The position numbers were made by a program, and so were the translations under genes. From Sphaerisporangium album (lineage in GTDB: Bacteria; Actinomycetota; Actinomycetes; Streptosporangiales; Streptosporangiaceae): a DNA stretch of 64,000 nt. This document shows positions 8,658 through 58,802 of the stretch, piece by piece. Positions within the stretch are counted from its first letter, which is position 1. The number at the start of each line of letters is the position of its first letter. The DNA lies in the NCBI RefSeq assembly GCF_003323745.1, contig NZ_QOIL01000019.1, forward strand, positions 62,001-126,000. The letters are read 5' to 3'. A model generated the notes under the pieces. The model saw nothing but the letters and a program-made list of their open reading frames with translations. It did no database searches and had not been told where the DNA came from.

Positions 8658-8717
8658 GCCCCCTGTGCTCCTTCGTCGCCTGAACGTCCATGAGTCCGTG
8701 CTTCTAGGAGTAATGCT

Positions 8718-20016: not shown

Positions 20017-20126
20017 TGTCGGCCTCGCGTCCAGGGCGCGGAGACCGCCCCGGCCGGCCGGTGACGGCGGCGCCGGGACGGTCTCACTGTGGGGGGTGCC
20101 TTGCGGGGGTCTCCTGGCGATGGGGC

Positions 20127-20777
20127 CTACTTGCGCCAGAATTGGATGTTGCTCCACTCGACCGTGATCGGCCCCTGCCCGCTGTTGGTCCGGTAGGAGC
20201 CGAACTTGTCGTAGAAGGAGCCGCCGGGGCTGGACTCCGTGCGCTTGAGTGAGCCGTTGATGTACGTCTTGTGGGTCTTGCCCACCTCATGCACCGTGTT
20301 GACGCGGACGGTGGTGCCCACCGTCGCGCCGGTCGCGATCGTGGTGCCGCCGTGCACGGCGTAGAGCCGGCCGCCGCGCTCGACGGCGAGCATGAAGTAC
20401 GGGCCCTGAGGGTCCTGGAACGTCTGCTTCAGGCTGATGCGGGTGCCGCCCATGCTGGTGATCTTGAAATAGCCCTGGAACTGCCGTGTGCCGCCGGTGT
20501 AGGTGTCGTAGCGCCGCTCCGCGCGCTGGTCGCCACTGGCGGTCGAGCACGTGAGCTGGAAGGTCCCGCCGCTGACCTTCCCGCAGCCGCGCTGCTGGAC
20601 CGCGAAACCGGGCGAGTACGACGTCCAGGGCCCTGCCTCGACCGGCGGGTCGGCGGCGAGGGCCGTGGCCGGCCGCTGCGCGGGCGCCGCGGAGGCGGGA
20701 ACCGCCGCGGGCACTGCGGCCATCGGCCCGGCCACCGCCAGGGCCGTGAACGCCCACAGGCGCTTCGAAGATCGCAT
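20127..20777 (-). CDS. Secreted jelly-roll (polysaccharide-lyase-like) protein
   Basis: 216 residues from ATG 20777, with AGGAG about 8 bases upstream. Residues 1 to about 32 are a signal peptide (KRLWAFTALAVAGPMAAVPA). The mature protein is beta-rich with a single cysteine pair region (GCGKVSGGTFQLTC). It has features seen in small concanavalin-A-like lyases and carbohydrate-binding proteins (GYFKITSMGGTRISLKQTFQ, YFMLAVERGGRLYAV, FGSYRTNSG). Acidic-polysaccharide binding or cleavage is plausible but no catalytic residues can be named. The gene faces away from the LacI regulator at 21547. Confidence 0.65.
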   Translation of the reverse strand: MRSSKRLWAFTALAVAGPMAAVPAAVPASAAPAQRPATALAADPPVEAGPWTSYSPGFAVQQRGCGKVSGGTFQLTCSTASGDQRAERRYDTYTGGTRQFQGYFKITSMGGTRISLKQTFQDPQGPYFMLAVERGGRLYAVHGGTTIATGATVGTTVRVNTVHEVGKTHKTYINGSLKRTESSPGGSFYDKFGSYRTNSGQGPITVEWSNIQFWRK

Positions 20778-21546
20778 CGGACTTCTCCTGACTGTCTCGG
20801 GGGGTAAGACCGTCATCTCAGGACCGCGCGGACGAGCATGGTGTCGCGGTCCTTCAAGGCATGTCCGGCCACCGGGACGGCATCGTCAACGTCCCGGGGC
20901 ACGGATCGGGGTGGATCACCGCGCGCGATGAGAGGAAAGTAAACCTCTTAACGAACGGCGGTCAAGATGGTGAACGCTATCCATATATATGAACACTCTC
21001 CACGGGCAGGGGAGTCCGATGATTGTGTCCAGAAGGCCCCGCCGTGCGTTATTCCGAACGACGTGGAGGGATTGGATACGTCGAAAGGTCGGATGAATCT
21101 CGTCAGTTTACACGCTTGTTAAGGGCGGGCCGAAATATGCATTCAGGAAAGTACCCCAGATCCCCGGATGTGCTTCATGGCGGCGGGCGGGCCTCCCGGA
21201 CGGCGCCCGTCGCGTCGGCGTGGATCGGTCCCCGGGTAGGTGTTCCGGGGCCTGGACGGGGGTGGGCATTGTCGCCGATGCAATAAGTCGACGGTATTGC
21301 GCAATATTGCCGGAATGTTAACGCCGTCGGCGGATGCCTCCCGTTCGGCGGTGGATTTCGCCGCTGGACCTGGGGAATCGGGAGTCCGGCCCGCTCGGGT
21401 GGCTAAGTATGGGTCCGAGCTGTGGTGACGTCTCGGCGGGACCGTTTGGCCTTGCCAGGAGGCCTCCGGGTGGCCGTCGGGTGGCTCGCATGCCAAATCA
21501 TGATGCTGTCACCGGCTTGCGTTGTTTTTTACAGTATCCTTGCGGC
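20778..21546. other. Long intergenic region with AT-rich patches
   Basis: No convincing gene in these 769 bases; open frames on both strands lack ribosome binding sites and the third-position GC bias. Around 20930-21000 and 21100-21130 the base composition drops well below the genome level (runs such as CCATATATATGAAC). On the minus strand TTGACC near 20965 precedes AGGTTTACTTTCC, a possible promoter for the jelly-roll gene. The right end holds the LacI promoter. Confidence 0.4.
21506..21535 (+). promoter_or_regulatory. Probable promoter of the LacI regulator gene
   Basis: CTGTCA (21506-21511) and TACAGT (21530-21535) are separated by 18 bases, and the ATG follows only 11 bases after the -10 element. 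There is no ribosome binding site, so the transcript is likely leaderless or nearly so, as is common in actinomycetes. Confidence 0.4.
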
Positions 21547-22575
21547 ATGACACGACGACTTGCGGAAGTTGCTAAGAAGGTCGGGGTCAGCGAGGCCACG
21601 GTCAGCCGGGTGCTCAACAGCAAGCCCGGGGTGTCGGAGTCCACGCGCGCCGCGGTGCTGACCGCACTGGACGTGCTGGGCTATGAGCGGCCGTCCCAGT
21701 TGAGGGGGGAGCGGGCACGCCTGGTCGGGCTCGTGCTGCCCGAGCTGGGCAATCCGATCTTCCCCGCCCTGGCGGAGGTCGTCGGGGGCGCGCTGGCGCA
21801 GCGGGGCTTCACACCGGTGCTGTGCACGCGCACGGCCGGAGGGCTGTCCGAGGCCGACTACGTCGAGATGCTGCTGGACCAGCAGGTCTCGGGCGTGGTC
21901 TTCGCCGGCGGCCACTACGCCGAGGCCGACGCCCCCCACGAGCACTATCGGCGGCTGCTGGAGCTTCGCCTGCCGGTCGTCCTGGTCAACGCCGCCAGCG
22001 AGGCCCTCGGGTTCCCCTGCGTGGCCACCGACGACGCGGTGGCGGTCGAGCAGGCGTTCGGCCACCTGCTCTCCCTTGGCCACGAGCGCATCGGCCTGGT
22101 CCTCGGCCCGCACGATCACGTCCCCTCGCGCCGCAAGCTGATGGCGTTCGTCGAGGCGGCGCGGCGGGTGGGCGTGGACGCGGGTCCCGAGACGGTCGAG
22201 CGGGGGCTGTTCTCGGTCGAGGGCGGCCAGGCCGCGGCGGCCCGGCTCGTCCGGCAGGGCTTCACCGGCATCATCTGCGCGAGCGACCCCCAGGCTCTTG
22301 GAGCGATCCGCGCGGTGCGCCGCCTGGGCCTTTCCGTGCCCGAGGACGTGTCGGTGGTCGGCTACGACGACTCGGCGTTCATGAACTGCACGAACCCTCC
22401 GCTGACGACCGTGCGGCAGCCGATCGAGGCGGTCGGCCGGGCCGCGGTCACGCTGCTCGCGGGGCAGATCGACGGCGCGTCCGTCACCGCGCAGGAGCTG
22501 CTGTTCGAGCCCGAGCTGGTGGTCCGGGGCTCCACCGCGCCGGTCAGGGCCCGGGTGCTGGCCGCGGCCGTGTGA
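21547..22575 (+). CDS. LacI/GalR family transcriptional regulator
   Basis: 342 residues from ATG 21547, where the canonical DNA-binding domain begins (TRRLAEVAKKVGVSEATVSR, VLNSKPGVSE, then hinge). The longer open frame upstream is not coding-like. The C-terminal half is a periplasmic-binding-type sugar sensor (LVGLVLPELGNPIFPALAEV, SVVGYDDSAFMNCTNPPLTT). It is the only LacI member in the window. Nearest possible targets are its own promoter and the secreted jelly-roll/FN3 genes. The tandem palindromes of the GH92 gene at 57 kb are of the LacI-operator type, but no copy is seen near this gene. Confidence 0.9.
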   Translation: MTRRLAEVAKKVGVSEATVSRVLNSKPGVSESTRAAVLTALDVLGYERPSQLRGERARLVGLVLPELGNPIFPALAEVVGGALAQRGFTPVLCTRTAGGLSEADYVEMLLDQQVSGVVFAGGHYAEADAPHEHYRRLLELRLPVVLVNAASEALGFPCVATDDAVAVEQAFGHLLSLGHERIGLVLGPHDHVPSRRKLMAFVEAARRVGVDAGPETVERGLFSVEGGQAAAARLVRQGFTGIICASDPQALGAIRAVRRLGLSVPEDVSVVGYDDSAFMNCTNPPLTTVRQPIEAVGRAAVTLLAGQIDGASVTAQELLFEPELVVRGSTAPVRARVLAAAV

Positions 22576-22749
22576 CGACGTCCGGGAGGCGGGACGGCCG
22601 CCGCCGGGGTGTAACGGTCCACACGCGGACGCTCCGCACGTGGGCGGTCGCGCGCCCGTGGCAGCCCCCGCCTCCCGCCCCCCGAAGGTGGCCGACTCGC
22701 CGCGTTCACAGCGGCAGCCGGAAGGACGTCATTTATTTGCGGTTCATGT

Positions 22750-22790
22750 AAGCCGCGTTGCCGGGAGTTGCCGGCTTCTGCAAGCGGCTT
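22750..22790. terminator. Hairpin between convergent LacI and SARP genes
   Basis: AAGCCGC (22750-22756) pairs with GCGGCTT (22784-22790) around a loop that itself contains GCCGG / CCGGC. It lies between two converging genes, where a bidirectional terminator is expected. Confidence 0.35.
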
Positions 22791-22847
22791 GTGAGGGGTT
22801 TCGGGCTCGCGGTGGGCTCGCATCGGGGCCCGCCGGGCACGCGGCCG

Positions 22848-25800
22848 TCAGGCCTTGTAATTCTTGGCGTCGATGATCTGGTTGAGCTGGGCGCGCATCT
22901 GCTGGGCGAGCGAGGCGTCCATCTTGTCGGTCAGCGCCAGCGCCCGCGCCAGCGAGTCCTGCGCCGCCTCGCCGTCCCCGGCATCCTGCTGCGCCTCGCT
23001 GAGGGAGATGAGCGTGCGGGCCTCCAGCAGCGGCATGTGCATGGCCCGGAACAGCGAAAGCGCCTGCTCGAAATGGACGACGGCCTGCGGCGCGTCCTCC
23101 TGCGCGATGGACAGCTCGCCCAGCCCGAGCTGCACCCGGGCCTCCACGAGCTGCTCGCTGGACGTGCTCGCCAGCATCAGTGACCGGTGCAGCGCGCTCG
23201 CGGCGTCGGCCAGCTCCCCTCGCCGGAGCCGGGCGATGCCGAGGCCGTGCAGGGCGTACGCCTCGCCTGTGGGGTCACCGATGTTGCGCACGACCGCGAG
23301 CGCCTCGTTGAAGACCTCCGCCGCCAGCGCGGGCTGGTCGGACTGGAGGTAGGTATGGCCGATGCGGTGGAGGACCTGCGCCTCCACCCGCCTGCTGCCG
23401 CTCGTGCGGCTCAGCTCCAGCGCCTCGGTCAGCAGGCGCTGCGCCCCCGGAAGGTCGTCGAACTCCAGACGGAGCTGGGCCAGGTTGTGCAGGACGTACG
23501 CCGACGCGACCTGGTCCTCGGTGCTCCGGAATATCTCCAGGGCCCGTTTGTAATGTGCCTCTGCGTCGGAGAACCGCCCGCTCAGCCGATCCAGGAACCC
23601 GATGTTCCTGATGACCAGGGCCGTTCCCTGCCTGTCCCCGACCTCCTCGAACAGCTGGACGGCCGCCTCGAAGTCGCAGCGGGCGTCGCCGAAGCGCTGT
23701 TCGGTGATGTAGAGCGAGCCGCGCGAGTAGTGCATCGCCGCCTGCCCGCGTTTGTCCTGCGCCTGCCGGGCGGCCGTCAGCGCGATCTGGTGGGTCTCCC
23801 GCCAGTCGTCGAGGTAGACCCGCGACTCGAAGAGCGTGACCGAGCTGATCGCCAGGTCCCAGCACAGCTCGACGAACCCCGCCTGCGCCGCCTGGCGTAT
23901 GCCGGAGACGAGCATCGACCGCTCGCGCTCGTACCACTGCAGGGGGGCCGCGACGAGCTGGCCGACGAGCTTGTCCGGCAGCGGCCAGCGCATGGCGCCG
24001 CTGTGGATCTGGACGTAGTCCCCGCCGTACTCCCTGCGGTGCGCGGCCTCGGCCAGGTAGAGGAGGCCGCCGAGGACGCGGGCCAGGGCGGCGCCGCGCT
24101 CGGCGGGGGTCTCCTCGGCGGCCAGGCGCTCGCGGGCGAACACGCGCAGCAGGTCGTGGAAGCGGTACTGGCTGTGGACGCCGTACCCGATGCCGGTGGT
24201 CTCGATGAGCTGGGCGTCGGCCAGGTCGTCCAGCAGGTCCTGGGCCTCGGCCAGCGGCCGGTCCAGCAGAGCGGCGCTGACCCAGGCGGAGAAGACGGGT
24301 GAGTCGAGGATGGTCAGGCGGCGGAACAGGCGGCGCGCGTCCTCGCTGATGCTGTCGTAGGTCAGCGAGATGCTCGCCCGGATCCCCATCTCGCCGTGCT
24401 TGAGCTCGTCCAGGCGGCGGGTCTCGTCCTCCAGGCGGCTGACGAGCTGCTCGATGCTCCAGTGCGGGCGGGCCGACAGGCGCGCGCCGGCGATGCGCAG
24501 CGCCAGCGGCAGGTGCCCGCACAGCTCGGCCAGGGCCTCGGCGGCCTCGATCTCCGACTGCACGCGCTCGATGCCCGCGATGCGCGACAGCAGGTTGACC
24601 GACTGGTCGGACTCGAAGATCTCCACGTCGACGTGGACGGCGCCGGCCAGCCCGGCCAGGCGGCTGCGGCTGGTGATGATGACGGCCGAGGCCGGGTTGC
24701 CGGGGAGCAGGGGCAGCACCTGGCTCTCGCTGCCGGCGTCGTCGAGGACGATGAGCATACGGCGGTCGGCGAGCAGCGCGCGGTACATCTCGGCCCGCTC
24801 CTCCAGGCCGTCGGGGATCGCGGTGCCCGACACGCCGAGGACGCGCAGGAAGCGTTCGAGGACCTGCATGGGGCTGGTGGGCCGGGGCGCGGCGCCGTGC
24901 AGGTCGGCGAAGAGCTGGCCGTGGGGGAAGCGGTCGCCGACGCTGTGGGAGGCGTGGACGGCGACGGTGGTCTTGCCGACGCCGGGCTTGCCCACGATCA
25001 CGATGATGGGGACGGCGAACCGCGAGCGGTCCTCCGAGGCGAGCATCAGCCGCTGCCGGATGTCCTCGATCTGCTTGGTGCGCCCGGTGAAGTCGGCGAT
25101 GTCGGTGGGCAGCATGCCCGGGACGTTCGGGACGGTCGGCGCCGGCTGCGCCTGCACCCGCTCCGGCTGGGCGGGCGGGTCCAGGCTCTCGTCGGAGGTG
25201 AGGATCGCGTGCTCCAGCTGCTGGAGCCGCTCGTTGGGTTCGATGCCCAGTTCCTCGATCATCGTGCGCCGGGCGTTGCGGTACACCTGGAGGGCCTCGG
25301 CCTGGCGGCCGGAGCGGTACAGCGCGGTCATGAGCTGGCCGCGCAGCCGCTCGCGCAGCGGATACTCCTCGGTCAGCTCGGTGAGCTCGCCGACCAGCTC
25401 GTGATGGCGCCCGAGGTCGAGCTCCAGCTGGATGCAGTCCTCGTTGGCGGTGATGCGGTCCTCGGCGAGCCTGCTGGCCGCCGACTGCACCAGCCTGCTG
25501 TCGATGCCGTCCAGGGCCGGGCCCCGCCACAGCGAGAGCGCCTCGCGGTAGTGCCGGATCGCCTCGTTGACGTTGCGGCTCTCGCGGGCGCGCCGGGCCC
25601 GCTGGACGAGGCTCTCGAAGCGCTGGGCGTCGATCTCGTCGGCGGCGACCCGGATGGCGTAGCCGAGGGACTGCGTGGAGATGATGTCGGGGCTGCCGTT
25701 GGCCGCGAACAGGCGCCGCAGTGAGGAGATGCAGATCTGGACCTGGGCCCGGGCGGTCGTCGGGGGCTCGTCGCCGTAGATGGCCTCCATGAGGCGGCCG

Positions 25801-25925
25801 ATGGTGACGACCCGGTTGGCGTCGAGCAGGAGGACGCCCAGCACGATCTGCTGCCTGATCCCGCCGAGATCAAGCCGCCGACCGGCCACGGACGCTTCGA
25901 GAGCCCCTAGAATCCCGAATTCCAC
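22848..25925 (-). CDS. AfsR/SARP family regulator with NB-ARC and TPR domains
   Basis: 1025 residues from a GTG at 25925 with GAGGAG seven bases upstream. The N-terminal OmpR-like winged helix (to about 95) and the bacterial transcriptional activation domain (about 98-245) define a SARP. The NB-ARC ATPase has its P-loop at 312-320 (GKPGVGKTT) and a Walker B region MLIVLDDAGSE. Residues from about 690 to the end are tetratricopeptide repeats. This is the AfsR architecture; such proteins activate secondary metabolism or differentiation after signal-dependent oligomerisation. About 430 AT-rich bases and a short peptide gene lie upstream on the same strand. No biosynthetic core enzyme lies beside it. 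Confidence 0.93.
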   Translation of the reverse strand: MEFGILGALEASVAGRRLDLGGIRQQIVLGVLLLDANRVVTIGRLMEAIYGDEPPTTARAQVQICISSLRRLFAANGSPDIISTQSLGYAIRVAADEIDAQRFESLVQRARRARESRNVNEAIRHYREALSLWRGPALDGIDSRLVQSAASRLAEDRITANEDCIQLELDLGRHHELVGELTELTEEYPLRERLRGQLMTALYRSGRQAEALQVYRNARRTMIEELGIEPNERLQQLEHAILTSDESLDPPAQPERVQAQPAPTVPNVPGMLPTDIADFTGRTKQIEDIRQRLMLASEDRSRFAVPIIVIVGKPGVGKTTVAVHASHSVGDRFPHGQLFADLHGAAPRPTSPMQVLERFLRVLGVSGTAIPDGLEERAEMYRALLADRRMLIVLDDAGSESQVLPLLPGNPASAVIITSRSRLAGLAGAVHVDVEIFESDQSVNLLSRIAGIERVQSEIEAAEALAELCGHLPLALRIAGARLSARPHWSIEQLVSRLEDETRRLDELKHGEMGIRASISLTYDSISEDARRLFRRLTILDSPVFSAWVSAALLDRPLAEAQDLLDDLADAQLIETTGIGYGVHSQYRFHDLLRVFARERLAAEETPAERGAALARVLGGLLYLAEAAHRREYGGDYVQIHSGAMRWPLPDKLVGQLVAAPLQWYERERSMLVSGIRQAAQAGFVELCWDLAISSVTLFESRVYLDDWRETHQIALTAARQAQDKRGQAAMHYSRGSLYITEQRFGDARCDFEAAVQLFEEVGDRQGTALVIRNIGFLDRLSGRFSDAEAHYKRALEIFRSTEDQVASAYVLHNLAQLRLEFDDLPGAQRLLTEALELSRTSGSRRVEAQVLHRIGHTYLQSDQPALAAEVFNEALAVVRNIGDPTGEAYALHGLGIARLRRGELADAASALHRSLMLASTSSEQLVEARVQLGLGELSIAQEDAPQAVVHFEQALSLFRAMHMPLLEARTLISLSEAQQDAGDGEAAQDSLARALALTDKMDASLAQQMRAQLNQIIDAKNYKA

Positions 25926-26353
25926 CCTGCATCTCCTCGCAAGAAAGCCCGCGGCCCATCCGGAACTTTGCTCACCCTCCGATGCGAGAGGTAACAGGTG
26001 CCTGATTCCAGGAGATCCGCCCCGTAGTAAACATCGACCATTGGCCGGTTTGTCACACTCTTGCGCATTGATACTGCCAGGCGCCAGATAGTCACGTATA
26101 GCGATGTCACTTATGTCTGGATCGTACTACTATACGTGGTTCAGATCTATAGAGAGTCTACGAAGACTTTCCGAACTCGTATACTTGTTTGCACATGCAA
26201 CCAAATGCCGGATGTCGGACGACCCCCGTGCGGTGAAATGTCCGGTTATGTGCGTTGTTTCCCGTTTGAGTGACCCGGCTCGGCGGAGCGCGGGGCAGGG
26301 GATCGCTCTCCGGCGCGGCCGGAGGCGGGCCGGGTGCGCGAGCCGCCCGAGGC
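25926..26353. other. AT-rich control region upstream of the AfsR-type gene
   Basis: From about 26040 to 26230 the sequence falls to roughly half GC, in sharp contrast to the rest of the window. It includes ATAGTCACGTATAGC, CTACTATACGTGG and the inverted repeat TTGCA-CA-TGCAA (26189-26200). Open frames here are short and lack coding bias, so I read it as a regulatory region, possibly with several promoters. Confidence 0.5.
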
Positions 26354-26503
26354 TCAGCCCCACGGAGTCTGGCCGCCGCCCTTGACGGCCGCGGCGGCCA
26401 CGGTCGACCCGGCGGACCCGATGGGCGCGGTGCGGCCGGCGCCGGTGATCCGGGACGCGGCGGTCACGGCGACGCGGAAGGCGGGGCGGGCGTGAGCACT
26501 CAT
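26354..26503 (-). CDS. 49-residue peptide encoded upstream of the AfsR-type regulator
   Basis: ATG 26503 to TGA, with AAGAGG nine bases upstream. Nearly every codon ends in G or C from the ATG onward, whereas the same frame upstream of the ATG loses that bias; this supports both coding and the start. The peptide opens MSAHARPAFRVAVTAASRIT, has a Gly/Ala/Thr-rich middle and ends VKGGGQTPWG. It has no membrane helix and no lantibiotic-like Cys. The sharply defined Gly-rich, Trp-containing C-terminus is of the kind seen in signal or precursor peptides. It shares strand with the SARP gene. I do not recognise a family. Confidence 0.5.
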   Translation of the reverse strand: MSAHARPAFRVAVTAASRITGAGRTAPIGSAGSTVAAAAVKGGGQTPWG

Positions 26504-27022
26504 CTCTGCTGACCTCTTCTCGTGTCGCGGTGCTGCGAGGAGCCGCAGCCGGTGGGTTCCGAACACCGACAACATAGAAACCACCGCCATTCGGTCCTTA
26601 TCGGTTCTCTTCTCGCCTGCCATTTGTCCAGCTCAGAGCGCTATTCGGGGACTTTCGGTCATTGGAAGCCATTTCCGGCCGGCGAGGGGGTCGCGGGGGG
26701 CTCTCGCCGCCCGAAAGCGGCGCACGCAGGCGCGGGGGCCCCGTGGGCGCGCGCGAATGCCGGGCCGAATAGCCGGACGAAAGAGAATCGATAGCGAGAT
26801 ACGGCATTATTGCCCGCAGGCCGGAACTCTCCAGGTGTCCTTGGCATCTTCAGCTCCGGATCCATGCGCGTCGGCTCAGGGACGGTGAATCCGGATGTGC
26901 GGCACGCCGTCCGGCAGCTCACGCGCGTGTCGCGTCAGTGGGGGCGCCATGGCGACCGGCGCGCGATCGCAATGGTGGTCGAGCTGTCCGTCATGGCGGA
27001 CCCGGCAGATTGGGTTCTCGAG
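26504..27022. other. Intergenic region between the peptide gene and the HIUase-like gene
   Basis: 519 bases between divergent genes. Open frames exist on both strands. The plus-strand one is in frame with the HIUase-like protein and could extend it at the N-terminus (ATGs at 26864, 26972, 26993), but the extra residues have no counterpart in that family. Otherwise I see nothing firm. Confidence 0.4.
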
Positions 27023-27358
27023 ATGAGCATTACGGCGCAGGCGCTGGACGGCGTTTACGGCCGGTCGGCCGCAGGCGTACGCGCGCGCCTGGAGCAGGAC
27101 CGTCTCGGGCGATGGCAGGATCTCGCGGACGCGGAGACCGACAGCGAGGGCTGCATCAGCGAGTGGCGTGACAAGAAGCTGGAACGTGGGCTTTATCGCA
27201 TTGTTTTCGATAGTGACTACTACTTTGTCGGGTTGGGCCTGAGCGCTGCCTATCCAGAGATAATCGTCACTTTTCGCATGCAGGACGAGACCGACGCCTA
27301 TCTGATCCAGGTCATGTTGTCCCCGTACTCGTACTCGACCCACTTCCGGATCGCGTGA
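27023..27358 (+). CDS. Transthyretin/5-hydroxyisourate hydrolase-like protein lacking catalytic residues
   Basis: 111 residues from ATG 27023, the usual start and length of the family. The ribosome binding site is weak, so starts at 26993 or 26972 remain possible. The fold signature is clear: a first beta strand ending ALDG, GRSAAGVRARLE, WQDLADAETDSEG, GLYRIVFDSDYYF, YPEIIVTFRMQDE and the SPYSYST end. Yet each catalytic position of HIU hydrolase differs: the first His is Gln6, the Arg after Asp-Gly is Cys44, the late His is Leu94, and the terminal YRGS is replaced by HFRIA. So it is probably not a uricolytic enzyme but a binding or structural relative, as transthyretin is in animals. Lies 74 bases before a leuA paralogue, likely in one operon. 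Confidence 0.75.
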   Translation: MSITAQALDGVYGRSAAGVRARLEQDRLGRWQDLADAETDSEGCISEWRDKKLERGLYRIVFDSDYYFVGLGLSAAYPEIIVTFRMQDETDAYLIQVMLSPYSYSTHFRIA

Positions 27359-27432
27359 TCCACGCGAGCCGTGCCCTGTCCTCGCCCGACTTCCCGGGGG
27401 ACGGGCCCCAGGCGGAGAAGGGAACCCCCACA

Positions 27433-29244
27433 GTGACCACAGGAGACAACACGGGCACGGCCGCCGGTGCCGGGGGGCCGGCCAGGCCGCCCGCCGCGCG
27501 CTACCGCCCGTTCGCGCCGGTCCCGCTGGACGGCCGGACGTGGCCGGATAACACGATCACCTCGGCTCCGCGCTGGCTGTCGACCGACCTGCGCGACGGG
27601 AACCAGTCGCTCGCGATGCCCATGGCCCCCGAGCGCAAGCTGGCGATGTTCGACCTGCTGGTGCGCATGGGCTACCGGGAGATCGAGGTCGGCTTCCCGG
27701 TCGCCAGCCAGGACGACCACGCGTTCCTGCGCACGCTCATCGAGCACGACCTGATCCCGGACGACGTGCGCGTCTCGGTGCTCGTCCCGGCCCGCGACGA
27801 GCTGATCAGGCGCACCGTGGAGAGCCTGGACGGCATCCGGCGCGCCACGATCCACCTCTACAACGCGACCTCGCCGCAGTTCCGGCGCGTCGTGTTCGGC
27901 ATGGACCGCCACGAGTGCAAGGACCTCGCGGTCCAGGGCACGCGCCTGGTGATGAAGTACGCCGACAAGCTGCTGAGCGGGTGCGACCTCGGGTTCGAGT
28001 ACTCACCCGAGCTGTTCAGCGACACCGAGCTGGACTTCTCCCTTGAGGTGTGCGAAGCGGTGATGGACGTCTGGCGGCCGGAGGCCGGGCGCGAGATCAT
28101 CCTCAACTTCCCCGCCACCGTCGAGCGCTCGCTGCCCAACGTCTTCGCCGACCAGATCGAGTGGCTGGACCGCAACCTGTCCCGCCGGCGGCACGTCTGC
28201 CTGTCGATCCACCCCCACAACGACCGCGGCACGGGGGTCGCGGCCTCGGAGATGGCCCTGCTGGCCGGGGCGCAGCGCGTCGAGGGCTGCCTGTTCGGCA
28301 ACGGGGAGCGGGCCGGCAACGTGTGCCTGGTCACGCTCGGCCTGAACCTGCTGACCCACGGCGTCGACCCGGGCATCGACTTCTCCGACCTGGACGCGGT
28401 CCGGCGCACCGTGGAGGAGTGCACCGGGCTCCCCGTCCACCCGCGCCACCCCTACGGCGGCGACCTCGTCTACACGGCCTTCTCCGGGTCGCACCAGGAC
28501 GCCATCAAGAAGGGGTTCGAGGCCCGGGAGCGCGACGCGGCGGAGCGGGGCGTCGAGGCCGGGGACCTGCCGTGGGAGATGCCCTACCTGCCGCTGGACC
28601 CGCGCGACGTCGGCCGCACCTACGAGGCGGTCGTGCGCATCAACAGCCAGTCCGGCAAGGGCGGCGTGGCGTACGTGATGAGCGCCGCCCACGGGATGAA
28701 CCTGCCCCCCGCCCTGCGGGCCGACTTCGCCCGCGCCGTCCAGGCCAGGGCGGAGGAGAAGGGCGGGGAGATCACCCCCGAGGAGATGCTCGACCTGTTC
28801 GACCGCGAGTACCTGAAGTACGCGGCCCTGCCCCTTCCGCCGGCCTTCACCGGCAGGCCCGTCACCGTCGAGCTGCACGTCGACGGGGAGCCGTTCGACG
28901 TCGGCGGCGCGCGCACCGACTCCGTCCGGCGGGTGCGGGAGGCCCTGGCCGGATGGGGCGTGGAGGTCCGCGCGGTGCACCGCACGGCGGGACCGGCGCC
29001 CATCGACGGCGGGGTGGCGGTGTACGCGGAGTGCCTGCTGCCCGACGGCACGATGTGGGGGGCCGGGATCGATCCCGACGTGGGGACGGCCGCGCTGTCG
29101 GCCGTCCGCTCGGCGCTCACCCGTGCCCGCCTGCTCGCCACCATGGCCCCACCCGCCCGACCATCACCGCAGGCAGAGGAGGCCGAGCCTCTCGGCATAC
29201 CCGCGCCGAGCCCCTCACATCCCGCCGTGGCCGCCGCGCGGTGA
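27433..29244 (+). CDS. leuA: 2-isopropylmalate synthase paralogue (long, LeuA2-type)
   Basis: 603 residues from GTG 27433 (AAGGGA about 10 bases upstream). The TIM barrel carries the catalytic and metal motifs STDLRDGNQSL and SIHPHNDRGTG, and the GCLFGNGERAGN loop. It should condense acetyl-CoA with 2-oxoisovalerate or a similar oxo acid. The C-terminal allosteric domain is present (from about residue 470), but the Gly-Asn-Gly-Pro leucine-site segment of housekeeping enzymes reads GGARTDSVRR here, so feedback control may be altered. Placed after the HIUase-like gene and before a LAL regulator, not with other leucine genes, which suggests a specialised role. It could still be the main leuA. 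Confidence 0.85.
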   Translation: MTTGDNTGTAAGAGGPARPPAARYRPFAPVPLDGRTWPDNTITSAPRWLSTDLRDGNQSLAMPMAPERKLAMFDLLVRMGYREIEVGFPVASQDDHAFLRTLIEHDLIPDDVRVSVLVPARDELIRRTVESLDGIRRATIHLYNATSPQFRRVVFGMDRHECKDLAVQGTRLVMKYADKLLSGCDLGFEYSPELFSDTELDFSLEVCEAVMDVWRPEAGREIILNFPATVERSLPNVFADQIEWLDRNLSRRRHVCLSIHPHNDRGTGVAASEMALLAGAQRVEGCLFGNGERAGNVCLVTLGLNLLTHGVDPGIDFSDLDAVRRTVEECTGLPVHPRHPYGGDLVYTAFSGSHQDAIKKGFEARERDAAERGVEAGDLPWEMPYLPLDPRDVGRTYEAVVRINSQSGKGGVAYVMSAAHGMNLPPALRADFARAVQARAEEKGGEITPEEMLDLFDREYLKYAALPLPPAFTGRPVTVELHVDGEPFDVGGARTDSVRRVREALAGWGVEVRAVHRTAGPAPIDGGVAVYAECLLPDGTMWGAGIDPDVGTAALSAVRSALTRARLLATMAPPARPSPQAEEAEPLGIPAPSPSHPAVAAAR

Positions 29245-29480
29245 TAGCCACGCGATAAAGCCCGGAAGGTGCCCGAACTTAACGTGGGCATTAACGCCGA
29301 AATCGGACATGTATGGACAATCGGAAGACGCCACGGCGTGCCGCCGGGAATTCCCGGCCAAGCACGGAATAGGCGGACGGGGATGCGACGCACTGAACCC
29401 GCGTATCGGGGGAGGCCGCTCTCTGGGCTTTCGATTTACGGCGGGGATGTGATTTTCGTCGGGAAAGAGGGGGGCTCGTC
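29245..29480 (+). promoter_or_regulatory. Leader region of the LAL regulator gene
   Basis: 236 bases between leuA and the LuxR-type gene with moderately lowered GC and the near-repeat TTAACGTGGGCATTAACG at 29279-29296. No terminator or gene is evident. A separate promoter for the regulator is likely. Confidence 0.3.
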
Positions 29481-32279
29481 ATGAGCCTGATCGAACGACA
29501 GGAGGCGTTGGCCTCCTTGGAGGGACTACTCACCAGCGCTATCAACGGAAAAGGCCGGGTGGCCCTGGTAAGCGGCACCGTGGCGACCGGCAAGAGTGAG
29601 TTACTGCACTCATTCGCCGAGCACGCGGCCGAGCTCGGCGCACTGCCCGTCACCGCGACGGGCTCGCTCGCCGAGCGCGACATGCCGTTCGGGGTGCTCG
29701 GGCAGCTCATCCACGACGCGCCCCTGGTCCCGGCCGAGCGTGAACGGGCGATGGCGCTCCTGCAGGAGGGGGCCCGCGCCGTCAGCTCGTCCGAGCCGGG
29801 GGGCGAGCCGCTGAAACAGGTTGACGCGCAGATCGTCCACGCTCTGTGCACCGTCCTGCTGGAACTGTCCGAGCGCTATCCCCTGATGATCGTCGTGGAC
29901 GACGTGCACCACGCCGACCGGGCCTCGCTGCTGTGCCTGGCCTATCTGTCCCGGCGGGTGCGGTTCGCGCCGATCATCGTGGTGTTCAGCCACTCCACCC
30001 ACGGGAGGTACGCCGAGACGTCGTTCCCCACCGAGCTGCTGCGCCAGCCCCACTGCCGCAGGATCCAGCTCGCGCCGCTGTCGCAGGCGGGCGTGATGAG
30101 CCTGGTGGCCGAGCAACTCGGCGCCGGCGCGGCCGAACGGTTCGCCGGCGAGTGGTACGCCGTCAGCGGGGGCAACCCGCTGCTGGCCGCCGGGCTCGTC
30201 GAGGACTACCAGGCCGCGATGCGCTCGTCCGGGGGAGATCCACCGGAGGAGCTGGTCGTCGGCGAGGGCTACGGGCAGGCCGTCCTGTCCTGCCTGCACC
30301 GGGCCGACCCCAAGATGATGCAGGTCGCGTGGGGTCTCGGGGTGCTCGGACGGCCCGAGTCCCTGGCCAGGCTGCTCGACGTGGGCCAGGAGTACGTGAC
30401 CCGCCTGCTCAACGCCCTGGACGCCGCCGGCCTCCTGACCGGCGGCCGGTTCCGCCACGAGGCGGCGCGCTCCGCCGTCCTCGCGGAGCTGGACGCCGGG
30501 GAACGGTCCGAGCTGCACCGGCGCGCGGCCAGGCTCACCTACGACGGCGGCGGCTCCACCACCGTGGTCGCCGACCATCTGCTCAGCGCCGGAGGGTCCC
30601 ACGAGCCCTGGACCGTCGAGGTCCTGGAGGACGCGGCCCGGCAAGCCCTGCGCGACGGGCGGGTCGAACCGGCCGTGGAGTACCTGCGCATGGCCAGCCG
30701 GACCTGCACCGACGACCAGCGGCGGGTCAGGATCACCACCACGCTCATGCGGGCCGAGTGGCGCATCAACCCCAGCACGCCGACCGGCCACTTCACCCAG
30801 CTGACCGACGCGCTGCACCGCGGTCACCTGCGGGGAAGCGACGCCGTCGTGCTGGCCAAGGCCCTGCTGTGGCACGGCAGGCTCGAGGACGCCGAGGACG
30901 TCCTCAAACACCTCAACGAGTCGGAGGAGAAGCTGGACGCGGACACGATCACCGAGCTGGTGGTCACCCGTCCGTGGCTGCGCTGCTCCTACGCCCCGTT
31001 CCTCTCCCACCTGCCCCAGGTGAGCAGCGAGCAGTCACGCGCGGCGATCCTGACGGTGGCGGCCTACCGGCGCCTGGAGTCGGCGGTCACGCTCGCCGCC
31101 GTCCTCACCCGCGGGCCGCGCGAGGAGATCGTCTCCGGCGTGGAGCGCATCCTGCGCAGCTCACGCCTCGACGAGATGTCGATGGACACGGTGGAGAGCG
31201 CCCTGCTCGCGCTCACCTACGGGGGGCGGCCCGACAAGGCGGCGCCCTGGTGCGACCTGTTCATCGACGAGGCCTCCTCGCGGCGGGCGCCGAGCAGACA
31301 GGCGCGGCTCTCGGCGATCCGGGCCGAGATCGCCCTGCGCCAGGGTGACATGCTCGGCGCGGAGTTCCACGGCCGCCTGGCCCTGGACACCATCCCGCTG
31401 AGCGGCTGGGGCGTGGCGCTGGGCGGGCCGTTGTCCAGCCTCGTCATCGCCTCCACGGCGATGGGGAAGTACGACGCGGTCAACGAGCTGCTCGACCAGC
31501 CCGTGCCCGAGGCGATGTTCCAGACCCGCTGGGGCCTGCACTACCTGCACGCCCGCGGCCGCTACAGCCTGGCCACCGACCACGCCCAGCTCGCGCTGCG
31601 GGACTTCCAGCGGTGCGGCGAGCTGATGGGCAAGTGGGACCTGGACGTGCCCTGGCTCATCCCCTGGCGGGCCGAGGTCGCCGAGGCGTGCCTGCGCCTC
31701 GGACGTCCCGACCAGGCCAGGAGGCTCGCCGAGGAGCAGATCAGACGGTGCGGCAACGGCGCGCCACGGGTGCACGGCATCGCCATGCGCCTGCTGGCCG
31801 CCACCAGCGAGCCACGCCACCGCCCGATGCTGCTGCGCCAGGCCGGTGACCTGCTGCAGGCGGGGGGAGACCGGTACGAGCTGGCGCGCGTGCTCGCCGA
31901 CCTGACGGAGGCGTTCCACGCGCTGGGCGAATACCGGCGGGCCGGCATGATCGGAGGGCGGGCCCGCGCCGTCGCCCAGGAATGCCACGCCGACCCGCTG
32001 CACAGGTCCCTGGCCAGGGAGGGCGACGGCAACGGCGCCACCGCCACGACGGGGACGGTCACCGAGACCACGGACGTGACGGCGATCCTGAGCGACGCCG
32101 AACGCCGGGTCGCGGTGCTCGCCGCCGCCGGGTACACCAACCGGGAGATCGCCGACAAGCTGTACGTCACGGTCAGCACCGTCGAACAGCACCTGACCAG
32201 GACCTACCGCAAGCTCGACATCACCAGCAGGGCCGAGCTGCCCTCCACGTTGCAGCTCGGCACCACGATGCCCGCCTGA
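29481..32279 (+). CDS. Large ATP-binding LuxR family (LAL) regulator
   Basis: 932 residues from ATG 29481, with AGAGGGGGG about 8 bases upstream. The Walker A loop is GTVATGKS (32-39), a slightly unusual version, and Walker B is LMIVVDDVHHAD (about 134-145). A long helical repeat region follows. The C-terminal 60 residues form a LuxR helix-turn-helix (ILSDAERRVAVLAAAGYTNR, VTVSTVEQHLTRTYRKL). LAL proteins respond to small molecules or nucleotides and typically control a neighbouring operon. Here that would be the HIUase-like/leuA pair or the SARP gene. Confidence 0.92.
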   Translation: MSLIERQEALASLEGLLTSAINGKGRVALVSGTVATGKSELLHSFAEHAAELGALPVTATGSLAERDMPFGVLGQLIHDAPLVPAERERAMALLQEGARAVSSSEPGGEPLKQVDAQIVHALCTVLLELSERYPLMIVVDDVHHADRASLLCLAYLSRRVRFAPIIVVFSHSTHGRYAETSFPTELLRQPHCRRIQLAPLSQAGVMSLVAEQLGAGAAERFAGEWYAVSGGNPLLAAGLVEDYQAAMRSSGGDPPEELVVGEGYGQAVLSCLHRADPKMMQVAWGLGVLGRPESLARLLDVGQEYVTRLLNALDAAGLLTGGRFRHEAARSAVLAELDAGERSELHRRAARLTYDGGGSTTVVADHLLSAGGSHEPWTVEVLEDAARQALRDGRVEPAVEYLRMASRTCTDDQRRVRITTTLMRAEWRINPSTPTGHFTQLTDALHRGHLRGSDAVVLAKALLWHGRLEDAEDVLKHLNESEEKLDADTITELVVTRPWLRCSYAPFLSHLPQVSSEQSRAAILTVAAYRRLESAVTLAAVLTRGPREEIVSGVERILRSSRLDEMSMDTVESALLALTYGGRPDKAAPWCDLFIDEASSRRAPSRQARLSAIRAEIALRQGDMLGAEFHGRLALDTIPLSGWGVALGGPLSSLVIASTAMGKYDAVNELLDQPVPEAMFQTRWGLHYLHARGRYSLATDHAQLALRDFQRCGELMGKWDLDVPWLIPWRAEVAEACLRLGRPDQARRLAEEQIRRCGNGAPRVHGIAMRLLAATSEPRHRPMLLRQAGDLLQAGGDRYELARVLADLTEAFHALGEYRRAGMIGGRARAVAQECHADPLHRSLAREGDGNGATATTGTVTETTDVTAILSDAERRVAVLAAAGYTNREIADKLYVTVSTVEQHLTRTYRKLDITSRAELPSTLQLGTTMPA

Positions 32280-32751
32280 CAGACACGCCTTCCCCGGACG
32301 CGCTGGATCGGAGCGCTTCCGAGGACGCTCCGGCCCCGGGCCGGAACGCAAGAGGCCCGAGCACAGGCCGCTCCGCGCGAGACGAAGTCCTCGCGGGAGA
32401 AGTCGCCGGCCTGTGCCACCGCCGCTCAGCGGCGACGCGGGCCCGAACGGATCGCCCCCGCCCCACGTGCCCGGCACACGACCGGCACCCGCGCCCGGCG
32501 GATCCCACGCACCACCCACGCAGGCCAAGGCACTCGCCGCCGCGCATCCCGCGTTCCCGGCACCGCGCGCCTTCGGCGGCCTCCTACGGGCCTCGCCCCA
32601 GCCGGTCGCCCGTGCGGAAGCCCCTATTCCGCTTGTCGCGCTATCGCGCACCCCAGGCGCCCGGGGGGCCTGTACCGCGTGCCGCCATTGCCGGGGCCGG
32701 TTCGTGCACTACCGTCACGGACAGTGACCGCGGCGGTTCCGGGAGGGGATC
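32280..32751. other. Intergenic region with no supported gene
   Basis: 472 bases of very GC-rich, Pro/Arg/Ala-coding-like sequence. Open frames in several phases lack ribosome binding sites and consistent third-position bias. I see no hairpin strong enough to call. The last 40 bases before 32752 hold the promoter and GGGAGGG site of the DUF1275 gene. Confidence 0.4.
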
Positions 32752-33468
32752 ATGGCCTCGCGCACGCGGGGCGCCTCCCGTGACCCTCTGCCTCCCGCCC
32801 TTCTCGCGCTCACGCTGCTCAGCGGCTGTGTCGACGCGGTCAGCCTGCTCGCGATGGGCCGGGTCTTCACGGCGAACATGACCGGCAACGTGGTCATCCT
32901 CGGCCTCGCCGCCGCGGGCACGCCCGGATTCTCCGCCGTCGCGTCGCTGACCTCGCTGCTCGGCTTCATGGCCGGGGCGCTCGCCGCCGGGCGGCTCGGC
33001 GTCCACGTCCCCTCCTCCCGTGCCCGCGTGCTGATCAGCCTGGCGGCGGAGACCGTCCTGATCGCGGTGGCCGCGGGGGTTTCGTCCCGCTCGCGGGCCG
33101 TCACGGGCGGCTACGACCCCGTGGTCGCGTTGGTCGCCCTCGCCATGGGGCTGCAGTTCGCCACCGTGCGGTTGCTCGGGATCCCCGACCTGACCACCAC
33201 GATCCAGACGCGGATCCTCACCGGCCTGGTCGCCGACTCCCGCCTCGCCGGGGGCGAGGGCCCGCGGGCCGGCCGCCGGATCGCCTCCGTGCTGACCCTG
33301 GTGCTGGGCGCCTTCGCCGGAGCGCAGGCGTACCGGGCGGGAGGCGTGGCCCGGACACTGGCCGCCGTCGCCGTCTGCGTCGCCCTGATCGCCGTCGTCT
33401 ACGCCGTGCGCTCACGCCCGCGGGGCGCCGGCCCCGCGGGCACGCGTCCGCGAGACGAAGGCCCGTGA
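32752..33468 (+). CDS. DUF1275 (YoaK-type) membrane protein
   Basis: 238 residues from ATG 32752 with GGGAGGG four bases upstream. Six predicted membrane helices. The family hallmarks are LLSGCVDAVSLLAMGRVFTA followed by NMTGNVVILG near the start, and GIPDLTTTIQTRILTGLVAD in the middle. YoaK-type proteins are widespread with no proven transport substrate. The gene stands alone between the LAL regulator and a hypothetical gene on the opposite strand. Confidence 0.9.
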   Translation: MASRTRGASRDPLPPALLALTLLSGCVDAVSLLAMGRVFTANMTGNVVILGLAAAGTPGFSAVASLTSLLGFMAGALAAGRLGVHVPSSRARVLISLAAETVLIAVAAGVSSRSRAVTGGYDPVVALVALAMGLQFATVRLLGIPDLTTTIQTRILTGLVADSRLAGGEGPRAGRRIASVLTLVLGAFAGAQAYRAGGVARTLAAVAVCVALIAVVYAVRSRPRGAGPAGTRPRDEGP

Positions 33469-33476
33469 GACGAGCC

Positions 33477-33492
33477 CCCCGCCGGGGCGGGG
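33477..33492 (+). terminator. GC-rich hairpin after the DUF1275 gene
   Basis: CCCCGCC-GG-GGCGGGG inverted repeat, nine bases after the stop codon. No T-tract, so only a possible terminator. Confidence 0.35.
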
Positions 33493-33715
33493 CCGATCAC
33501 GGCCGTCCTCTTCCCCGGCCGGCCGCAGCGACAGGTCCCCGGGACCATTGTGAGGCGGCGCGGCCGCGCACCGCGCGGTACGCGGCCGGGAACGGCGTCC
33601 TTCTCCCGAAGCCGTCCCCAGCCTCGAGGTGGATCGACCGGTGCAGGTCACGGGGATATGCCGAGCGTCGCGGAGACCAGGTCATCCGAAGGGGCATGAT
33701 CGTCGGAAGCTCCGG

Positions 33716-34258
33716 CTAGGCGAAGGAGCGTGCCTCGAAGCTGATCCCGCCGCGGTCGGCCATCCGCAGCACCCGACGGCCGTAACGCGGGGGCCGGCGG
33801 AGATAGAGCCTGAAGCCCAGGGCCTTGAACCTCAGGTCGAAGTCGCGGCCCTCCAGGTGCCACCGTGTCTCGTCACGCGGAATCACGGGCGTGGACCGGT
33901 GCAGGTTCCTCGTCTCAAGGGGAAGGCAGATGGAGCGCAGATCCCCGGTGACCGCCCACACGGAGTCGAAGACCAGCGTGGCCGGCGCGACCCAGAACTC
34001 GAAGCCGCGCCGAGGCACCGGCCCGACCCGGCGCACGATGTAGTCGAGATCGAAGTGCAGTGCCAGGCCCGACGGCGCGGAGGGGTCGAGGTCGTCCAAC
34101 TCCAGGCGCTCCTCCGGGGTCAGGTCGTCGGGAAGGCCCTCGTCGTCGGTGATGGCGAGGGCATGTACCTGGCAGGAGTCCCACGACATCGTGTCGAGGT
34201 CACCATCCGTCCAGGTGGCCTTGATCAGGCCGGACTCTTGGTGCACAGCGGGTTCCAT
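33716..34258 (-). CDS. Conserved hypothetical protein
   Basis: 180 residues from ATG 34258; the ribosome binding site is poor and ATG at about 34189 (MSWDSCQVHALAI) is an alternative. The protein has the pattern of a widespread uncharacterised family: a Trp-Asp-x-Cys-x-Val-His strand, LALHFDLDYIV, then FEFWVAPATLVFDSVWAV. No signal peptide or membrane segment. It ends in a basic C-terminal part (RLYLRRPPRYGRRVL). It lies 67 bases from the end of the SARP-ATPase gene; function unknown. Confidence 0.65.
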   Translation of the reverse strand: MEPAVHQESGLIKATWTDGDLDTMSWDSCQVHALAITDDEGLPDDLTPEERLELDDLDPSAPSGLALHFDLDYIVRRVGPVPRRGFEFWVAPATLVFDSVWAVTGDLRSICLPLETRNLHRSTPVIPRDETRWHLEGRDFDLRFKALGFRLYLRRPPRYGRRVLRMADRGGISFEARSFA

Positions 34259-34325
34259 CTGACAAGTATCGACCACGCACGTCAGGCGCGCCAGATCTCC
34301 GAAAGTGCGGGGCAAGGGCCGTTGG

Positions 34326-58298: not shown

Positions 58299-58802
58299 AT
58301 GACCGTTGACCTCCAACTTTCGGTGAACGAGCAGATATATCCGCTCACGGTGGACACCCGTGAGACCCTGCTCGACACGCTGCGTGAACGCCTCGACCTC
58401 GCCGGCTCCAAGAAGGGATGCGACCACGGGCAGTGCGGATCCTGCACGGTGCTGGTGGACGGCAGGCGCGTCAAATCCTGCCTCACCCTCACGGTCACCG
58501 TGGACGACCAGCCGATCACCACCGTGGAGGGGCTCGCGGGGGAGGACGGGCTGCATCCGCTGCAGAGGGCGTTCATCGAGCACGACGCCTTCCAGTGCGG
58601 CTACTGCACCCCCGGGCAGCTCTGCTCGGCGGCCGGCATGCTCGCCGAGGCGGCGCGGGGGTGGCCGAGCGCGGTCACCCCCGACGTCGCCGCCGACCCG
58701 GTGCTCGGCGAGGAGGAGATCCGCGAGCGGATGAGCGGAAACCTCTGCCGGTGCGGCGCCTACCCCGGCATCGTCGCCGCCATCGAGGAGGTGGCGCGAT
58801 GA
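58299..58802 (+). CDS. Iron-sulfur (2Fe-2S) subunit of a xanthine-oxidase-family aldehyde oxidoreductase (PaoA-like)
   Basis: 167 residues from ATG 58299; the ribosome binding site is weak and GTG 58251 is an alternative. The plant-type ferredoxin cluster is KKGCDHGQCGSCTVLVDG with the fourth Cys in SCLTL, and the second cluster uses QCGYCTPGQ and CRCGAYPG. It passes electrons from the molybdenum cofactor to the FAD subunit. No Tat signal is visible, unlike E. coli PaoA. The stop overlaps the FAD-subunit start (ATGA). Confidence 0.9.
   Translation: MTVDLQLSVNEQIYPLTVDTRETLLDTLRERLDLAGSKKGCDHGQCGSCTVLVDGRRVKSCLTLTVTVDDQPITTVEGLAGEDGLHPLQRAFIEHDAFQCGYCTPGQLCSAAGMLAEAARGWPSAVTPDVAADPVLGEEEIRERMSGNLCRCGAYPGIVAAIEEVAR

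What the first reader, a model, noticed from the sequence alone, without database searches (positions are those of the whole stretch)
27023..27358. Bacterial transthyretin-like pseudo-HIU hydrolase
The fold signature of 5-hydroxyisourate hydrolase is unmistakable, yet all known catalytic positions are substituted: first-strand His to Gln6, Arg after the turn to Cys44, late His to Leu94, and the terminal Tyr-Arg-Gly-Ser motif to His-Phe-Arg-Ile-Ala. Loss of the same residues turned the enzyme into the carrier transthyretin in vertebrates. No urate genes are nearby; it sits in front of a leuA paralogue between two giant regulators. A new binding role, perhaps for a metabolite or acyl intermediate, is possible.
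Basis: partly seen in the sequence, partly recalled or inferred. Interest (0 to 1): 0.7.

Follow-up and report, generated by a model that had tools for sequence, protein, structure and literature searches.

The report
Retired urate enzyme beside antibiotic-cluster regulators
A small protein with the fold of a urate-breakdown enzyme, but without that enzyme's catalytic residues, is kept next to the same type of antibiotic-cluster switch protein in many actinobacteria, often close to an enediyne-type gene cassette, which suggests it was reused as a helper or sensor for making natural products.

Summary
Confirmed. Window 27023-27358 encodes a 111-aa transthyretin/HIUase-family protein (HIUL; PF00576, AlphaFold pLDDT 92.9) lacking the HIU-hydrolase residues (Gln6, Cys44, Leu94, HFRI for YRGS). 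The genome has an intact HIUase beside a uricase elsewhere. HIUL belongs to a conserved clade (31 loci aligned; median dN/dS 0.08). Its constant partner is not LeuA (24 of 31 loci) but an AfsR/SARP-type regulator, found within 1.5 kb of 30 of 32 pseudo-HIUases (both misses contig-cut) and 0 of 23 catalytic HIUases. HIUL also tracks an enediyne-type PKS cassette genome-wide (24 of 27 HIUL genomes against 10 of 171 others): about 10-22 kb away in 10 genomes, but 1.7-1.8 Mb away, or on another contig, in Sphaerisporangium. Best reading: a non-catalytic transthyretin-like accessory, probably ligand-binding, of a SARP/LAL regulatory module for polyketide or peptide clusters. Loss of the catalytic residues and the module are shown; ligand binding and control of the regulator are inferred. 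An enzyme with a new substrate is the main rival. Searches of an open-access library brought up no description of it.

The parts
27023..27358 (+). HIUL: transthyretin/HIUase-family protein without the HIU-hydrolase residues (111 aa)
   Evidence: PF00576 69.9 bits; below the HIUase equivalog cut-off; AF2 pLDDT 92.9; 31-locus alignment A1; residue counts
22848..25925 (-). AfsR/SARP-type regulator: BTAD, NB-ARC, TPR (1025 aa), divergent to HIUL; the constant partner
   Evidence: Pfam; in 29 of 31 clade loci, the other 2 cut by contig ends; within 1.5 kb of 30 of 32 pseudo-HIUases and 0 of 23 canonical ones
25926..27022 (.). 1.1-kb intergenic region between SARP and HIUL, with conserved blocks at about 26024-26150 and 26500-26640 (judged by eye)
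   Evidence: alignment of 11 Sphaerisporangium loci; no Rfam family in 20000-36000
27433..29244 (+). LeuA-type 2-isopropylmalate synthase paralogue, motifs shared with the genome's other LeuA kept, C-terminal region divergent; start at GTG 27433 inferred from the alignment
   Evidence: NCBIfam PRK03739 743.6 bits; alignment; directly downstream of HIUL in 24 of 31 loci
29481..32279 (+). LAL-type LuxR regulator (AAA_16 plus GerE)
   Evidence: Pfam; present in 29 of 31 clade loci

Best explanation
HIUL is a transthyretin-fold relative of 5-hydroxyisourate hydrolase that has lost HIU hydrolysis and now works as an accessory of a regulatory module: SARP-NB-ARC-TPR regulator, HIUL, usually a LeuA paralogue, and a LAL-type LuxR regulator. 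The module belongs to specialised-metabolite clusters, most often an enediyne-type PKS cassette. Shown here: the predicted fold, absence of the catalytic residues, purifying selection, the tight pairing with SARP, and co-occurrence with the PKS cassette. Inferred: that HIU hydrolysis is really lost; that HIUL still forms the TTR-type oligomer; and that it uses the former active-site or channel region, or a surface that includes the invariant Arg85, to bind a small molecule (a pathway metabolite or the LeuA product) or the SARP itself, so that regulator activity or precursor supply follows that ligand. In Sphaerisporangium the module would act in trans on a PKS cassette elsewhere in the genome.
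For: Fold: AF2 pLDDT 92.9, pTM 0.85; Foldseek TM 0.92 to 2g2n; VIA-align Z 19.5, rmsd 1.3 to HIUase 2h1x and Z 19.6 to TTR. Catalytic residues absent at positions whose importance is described in PMC8272043 and PMC4324301 (passages read). A canonical HIUase sits beside a uricase in the same genome. dN/dS 0.076. SARP within 1.5 kb in 30 of 32 pseudo against 0 of 23 canonical. The pairing recurs on a Streptomyces plasmid, in unnamed family f20 and in four far more divergent pseudo-HIUases. In the unrooted tree all SARP-linked rows lie outside the canonical group (99/96 branch). Arg85 in 31 of 31 clade rows and 7 of 7 further pseudo-HIUases, against 2 of 16 canonical. PKS in 24 of 27 HIUL genomes against 10 of 171 others; about 10-22 kb from HIUL in 10 of these genomes and in G403. 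None of the three Sphaerisporangium PKS regions searched has a SARP or LAL hit above 120 bits.
Against: No ligand, complex or regulatory effect was shown; adjacency is not interaction. On the Streptomyces plasmid and in G397 HIUL starts 2 bp after an NRPS gene, which fits a biosynthetic role as well. Ten genomes have the PKS without HIUL and three have HIUL without it. G038, L090, L091 and the window show no PKS or NRPS in the stretch examined, nor do short stretches of L039-L041, L060, L148 and ten other Sphaerisporangium loci. Most second-tier SARPs read have no HIUL: of 19 SARP regions fetched, 4 have a pseudo-HIUase, 1 a possible remnant, 14 none, and those 4 were picked because hits coincided. 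Two divergent forms keep one catalytic-type residue: L088 His at position 94, L089 Arg at 108. No shared DNA motif between the HIUL intergenic region and the PKS promoter. Related genomes are not independent.
Confidence: 0.5

Rival explanations
1. HIUL is an enzyme with a changed substrate: it hydrolyses or isomerises a metabolite of the cluster or of the LeuA branch, using residues other than the HIUase set (for example Gln6, the polar residue at 94, Tyr107 outside Sphaerisporangium, Arg85).
For: Strong purifying selection. Tyr107 in 18 of 31 and Gly109 in 19 of 31. Same strand as, and directly before, LeuA in 24 of 31 loci. On a Streptomyces plasmid and in G397 it starts 2 bp after an NRPS gene, and on that plasmid and in G638 it is near leuA/C/D/B-like genes.
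Against: Position 94 varies (Q, L, K, R, N, S) and no new histidine pair is conserved. It occurs beside enediyne-type PKS, type I PKS and NRPS genes, so no one biosynthetic substrate is obvious. LeuA is missing in 7 of 31 loci.
Confidence: 0.27
2. HIUL is a carrier or protective binding protein for the reactive polyketide or its precursor, comparable in role to the enediyne apoproteins.
For: The TTR fold binds small aromatic ligands in its channel (many such complexes listed); co-occurrence with the enediyne-type PKS cassette.
Against: HIUL is next to regulators rather than inside the PKS gene block; relatives on a Streptomyces plasmid and in f20 sit with NRPS genes, and this PKS was not found in G397, G610 or G638 at E 1e-130; the predicted protein begins directly with the first TTR strand. 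The apoprotein comparison is recalled, not tested.
Confidence: 0.1
3. HIUL is a partner or allosteric subunit of the adjacent LeuA paralogue, whose C-terminal regulatory region is divergent.
For: LeuA directly downstream in 24 of 31 loci, shared motifs kept and no Pfam regulatory-domain hit in the window's copy; a different LeuA-type enzyme lies near HIUL on a Streptomyces plasmid and in G638.
Against: Seven of 31 loci have HIUL without LeuA in the stretch examined (two of them, L041 and L060, on short contigs); none of the four most divergent SARP-linked loci has a LeuA hit.
Confidence: 0.08
4. HIUL is still a 5-hydroxyisourate hydrolase.
For: Family membership and fold.
Against: Below the TIGR02962 equivalog cut-off (72.1 against 87.45); both histidines, the Arg and the C-terminal tetrapeptide are replaced; an intact HIUase beside a uricase is present elsewhere in the genome.
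Confidence: 0.02

Closest known systems
5-hydroxyisourate hydrolase (HIUase, UraH/PucM; TIGR02962, PF00576)
   Same: Fold, length, PF00576 membership, core motifs such as YPEI and LSPYSYST
   Different: Catalytic His, His, Arg and YRGS replaced; gene context is SARP/LAL regulators rather than urate genes
Vertebrate transthyretin
   Same: Fold (Z 19.6); the same HIUase positions are changed (K15, T106, T119 and A120 in human TTR, numbering recalled)
   Different: Different replacement residues (Q6, Q or L94, Y or H107, F108); bacterial gene next to regulators; ligand unknown
Other bacterial transthyretin-family structures without the enzyme role, such as type VI secretion Lip (PMC3225178, search listing and start of abstract only)
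   Same: Bacterial protein of the transthyretin structural family placed in another system
   Different: Lip is a membrane lipoprotein of a secretion machine; HIUL is a PF00576 member beside cluster regulators
Pathway-specific regulators of enediyne clusters, such as those of tiancimycin (PMC9464397, passages read)
   Same: Regulatory genes tied to an enediyne PKS cassette
   Different: The passages name an HxlR-family regulator and an orphan two-component system; the terms SARP, LuxR and hypothetical had no occurrence in that main text

Membership tests
PF00576 HIUase/transthyretin superfamily | Profile score above the curated cut-off | tested here: met
   69.9 bits against 25.3
PF00576 HIUase/transthyretin superfamily | Transthyretin fold | tested here: met
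   AF2 model pLDDT 92.9; TM 0.92 to 2g2n; Z 19.5 to 2h1x
5-hydroxyisourate hydrolase | Equivalog profile TIGR02962 above cut-off | tested here: not met
   72.1 bits against 87.45
5-hydroxyisourate hydrolase | Two active-site His, active-site Arg, C-terminal Tyr-Arg-Gly-Ser | tested here: not met
   Q6, L94, C44, H107-F108-R109-I110
5-hydroxyisourate hydrolase | HIU hydrolysis | not testable with these tools
   needs an enzyme assay
Transthyretin (hormone carrier) | Ligand binding in the tetramer channel | not testable with these tools
   only a monomer was predicted; no ligand data
Enediyne PKS cassette (E3/E4/E5/E/E10; the co-occurring system, not the finding itself) | E10-type thioesterase next to the PKS | tested here: met
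   for G043: best PDB matches 4i4j ACP-polyene thioesterase, then CalE7; DynE7 also listed
Enediyne PKS cassette | PKS with companion genes E3/E4/E5 | tested here: inconclusive
   for G043: KS, AT, KR and DH domains, two DUF1702 proteins and one UnbV_ASPIC protein; DYNE8 among the PDB matches; no NCBIfam enediyne model hit. That DUF1702, UnbV and an RnfD-like gene are E3/E4/E5 is recalled
Enediyne PKS cassette | Production of an enediyne | not testable with these tools
   product unknown

The most novel reading that the evidence does not exclude
A bacterial counterpart of the HIUase-to-transthyretin switch: a non-catalytic HIUase relative became a dedicated small-molecule receptor or carrier that works with a SARP-STAND regulator and controls enediyne-type and other polyketide or peptide clusters, acting in trans where module and cluster lie far apart (Sphaerisporangium).
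Probability: 0.35. Interest if true: 0.8.

Novelty: new variant of a known kind. Interest (0 to 1): 0.6.

Why it matters
It would be a second, bacterial case of HIUase losing catalysis and gaining another role, and it gives a marker (pseudo-HIUase beside a SARP) for regulatory modules of polyketide and peptide clusters. In Sphaerisporangium it points to regulators that lie away from the enediyne-type cassette they may control, a link that genome mining centred on single clusters would miss. At least one such protein is annotated as hydroxyisourate hydrolase (WP_331742712.1), so the signal can be hidden by its name.

Tried and rejected
Rejected or left open: (1) shifted catalytic residues or a frameshift: alignments show none and 31 loci agree. 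(2) Urate context: the canonical HIUase is elsewhere, beside a uricase. (3) LeuA as the defining partner: absent in 7 of 31 loci. (4) Arg-to-Cys as a clade trait: Arg in 17 of 31. (5) An RNA element near the locus: no Rfam match in 20000-36000. (6) A shared regulatory motif between the HIUL intergenic region and the PKS cassette promoter (three genomes): no shared 8-mer in the conserved columns, one 7-mer in reverse complement, inconclusive. (7) An NCBIfam enediyne model: none among the 25 best of 62 families shown for the PKS, none for six neighbours, so the cassette call rests. (8) Literature: searches returned 0 papers; some searches listed 8, 1 and 10 papers, none whose title or abstract start joins such a protein to SARP or polyketide clusters; some searches were on enediynes. 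This covers only the held open-access library.

Limits: ORF calling was a composition heuristic that dropped or mis-stranded some genes, so LeuA, SARP and LuxR counts use tblastn. The 23 canonical HIUases are those whose loci were returned by the searches, not a random sample. Genome samples, not all genomes, were searched (198 relatives, 394 of the class, 249 of one family). The family range of the second Fisher test (G011-G119) was read from listings that do not print every genome. The tree has only 112 columns and long branches for L088, L090, L091 and L093.

Full report
What is there. Window 27023-27358 (+) encodes a 111-residue protein, called HIUL here. It matches Pfam PF00576 with 69.9 bits (cut-off 25.3) and falls below the NCBIfam HIUase equivalog cut-off (72.1 against 87.45 bits). 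The best solved relative by sequence is a Salmonella transthyretin-like protein (2gpz, E 2.8e-14). AlphaFold2 with 31 family rows gives pLDDT 92.9 and pTM 0.85. Foldseek's best match is E. coli HIUase 2g2n (TM 0.92); VIA-align gives Z 19.5 at rmsd 1.3 to HIUase 2h1x and Z 19.6 to human transthyretin.

Catalytic residues. Published work names two His, one Arg and the C-terminal Tyr-Arg-Gly-Ser as the HIUase active site (PMC8272043, passages), and a review reports that rapid HIU hydrolysis did not occur with His-to-Ala and Tyr-to-Phe mutants (PMC4324301, passages). In HIUL these are Gln6, Leu94, Cys44 and His107-Phe108-Arg109-Ile110. In the 31-row alignment A1 the counts are: position 6 Q 28, H 1, E 1, R 1; position 44 R 17, C 6, other 8; position 94 Q 22, L 3, K 3, R 1, N 1, S 1; position 107 Y 18, H 11, F 1, S 1; position 108 F 29, C 1, L 1. 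So the second His and the tetrapeptide Arg are absent in 31 of 31, the first His in 30 of 31. The gene is under strong purifying selection: median dN/dS 0.076, maximum 0.22, over 55 pairs of 11 Sphaerisporangium loci.

A paralogue, not the urate enzyme. The same genome carries an intact HIUase at G000:C6:238767-239078, and its 3.3-kb surroundings encode a uricase.

Distribution. Among 198 relatives, 113 have some match to HIUL, with a gap between 27 genomes at 54% identity or more and the rest at 47% or less. Named members include Sphaerisporangium, Streptosporangium, Nonomuraea and Actinoplanes palleronii and Nonomuraea gerenzanensis. In an even sample of the class, 9 of 394 genomes score above 150 bits, all in the window's family. 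A more distant relative is on a Streptomyces plasmid, and a query with it finds 3 of 249 genomes of unnamed family f20.

Constant partner. tblastn on 31 clade loci (32 rows, one genome fetched twice and counted once) finds the SARP regulator in 29; the two misses (L040, L060) are cut by contig ends. The LAL regulator is found in 29 (one, G070, completed by the wider stretch) and LeuA in 24. With a flank of 1.5 kb, SARP is present at 30 of 32 distinct pseudo-HIUases (both misses contig-cut) and at 0 of 23 distinct canonical HIUases (duplicates dropped; canonical loci are those the searches returned). Four much more divergent pseudo-HIUases (L088-L091) also sit beside SARP genes of 42-46% identity. 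These four were picked because hits coincided; of the 19 SARP regions fetched, 14 have no HIUase-like gene and one has a possible remnant. One altered HIUase-like protein (L093) has no SARP hit and groups with the canonical enzymes. In the unrooted tree the canonical enzymes plus L093 are one side of a supported branch (99/96) and all 42 SARP-linked or clade rows lie on the other. Arg85 is present in 31 of 31 clade rows and 7 of 7 further pseudo-HIUases (one of these, L137, a clade member), against 2 of 16 canonical. Two of the divergent forms keep one catalytic-type residue in the alignment: L088 His at position 94, L089 Arg at position 108. SARP does occur without HIUL: each of the 11 Sphaerisporangium genomes has a second SARP of the group. 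Two of these loci were read (G000, G008); neither has a HIUL hit, and both are followed by a phosphopantetheinyl transferase gene (Pfam-tested in G000; by likeness in G008). G032 has a SARP of about 55% and no HIUL hit.

Cluster context. In several genera the module lies by a PKS; in G043 it is 1969 aa with KS, AT, KR and DH domains, with two DUF1702 proteins, a UnbV_ASPIC protein, a flavin reductase and a P450, and a thioesterase whose best PDB matches are an ACP-polyene thioesterase and CalE7, with DynE7 also listed. The enediyne PKS cassette is defined as E3/E4/E5/E/E10 (PMC5181780, passages); that DUF1702, UnbV and an RnfD-like gene are E3-E5 is recalled. Over the 198 relatives, 24 of 27 HIUL genomes have this PKS (500-aa KS-end query, E 1e-200 or better) against 10 of 171 without HIUL (Fisher p 6.5e-20). 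Within the family and without Sphaerisporangium it is 13 of 16 against 10 of 93 (p 2e-8). Related genomes are not independent, so these p values overstate the case. HIUL and the PKS lie about 10-22 kb apart in 10 of the 13 non-Sphaerisporangium genomes with both; in the other three they are on different contigs. Outside the 198, they are 10.6 kb apart in G403, on one 40-kb stretch in N. gerenzanensis, and 1.7 Mb apart in G275. All 11 Sphaerisporangium genomes have the PKS: 1.8 and 1.7 Mb from HIUL in G008 and G009, on a different contig in the other nine, where closeness cannot be fully excluded for short contigs. The three Sphaerisporangium PKS regions searched (G000, G008, G009, about 40 kb each) show no SARP or LAL hit above 120 bits. 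Other HIUL-type loci adjoin type I PKS (G070, G074, G275, L089) or NRPS genes (G060, L138, G638). None was found in G038, L090, L091 and the 64-kb window, nor in shorter stretches of L039-L041, L060, L148 and ten other Sphaerisporangium loci.

LeuA. The paralogue keeps the motifs shared with the genome's other LeuA and has a divergent C-terminal region (no Pfam regulatory-domain hit). On the Streptomyces plasmid and in G638 a different LeuA-type enzyme with LeuC, LeuD and LeuB-like genes lies near HIUL. LeuA-type chemistry is thus a recurrent but optional neighbour.

Mechanism. The best-supported reading is a non-catalytic TTR-fold accessory protein of a SARP/LAL regulatory module. Binding of a small molecule, and an effect on the regulator, are inferences from fold, conservation and gene context. 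The main rival is an enzyme with a new substrate, which the NRPS-adjacent genes (2 bp gap on the Streptomyces plasmid and in G397) would also fit. A search for a shared DNA motif between the HIUL intergenic region and the PKS promoter was inconclusive.

Novelty. Literature searches did not bring up such a protein; the library holds only open-access papers. The finding is a new variant of a known fold family, with a plausible new role.

Noticed in passing
G000:C15:50000-89900 (L151, L152); G008:C1 (L154, L155); G009:C1 (L156, L157): All 11 Sphaerisporangium genomes searched carry an enediyne-type PKS (KS end 83-86% identical to that of G043), far from or on another contig than the HIUL module.
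   Followed up: partly
G000:C9 (L104), G008:C1 (L105): A second SARP of the same group (about 70% identical) is followed by a 4'-phosphopantetheinyl transferase gene; such a gene also lies near the HIUL module in L042, L043 and G070.
   Followed up: partly
L138 (Streptomyces plasmid) and G638 (L147, L149, L150): NRPS clusters with leuA/leuC/leuD/leuB-like genes, a pseudo-HIUase and a SARP; the G638 cluster also shows trpE/G/D-like genes by sequence start.
   Followed up: partly
L107, minus strand, open frame 7804-8712: Possible remnant of a HIUL-like gene (22 bits) near a SARP in G073.
   Followed up: no
L067 (G000:C8:131018-131377): A 119-aa open frame resembling the LeuA C-terminal regulatory domain on its own, without the catalytic part.
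   Followed up: no
window 58418-61875: Molybdenum hydroxylase (xanthine/aldehyde dehydrogenase-type) subunits; not near HIUL.
   Followed up: no
L093, 9291-9632 (+): A HIUase-family protein with the first His replaced and an altered C-terminus, without a SARP hit.
   Followed up: no
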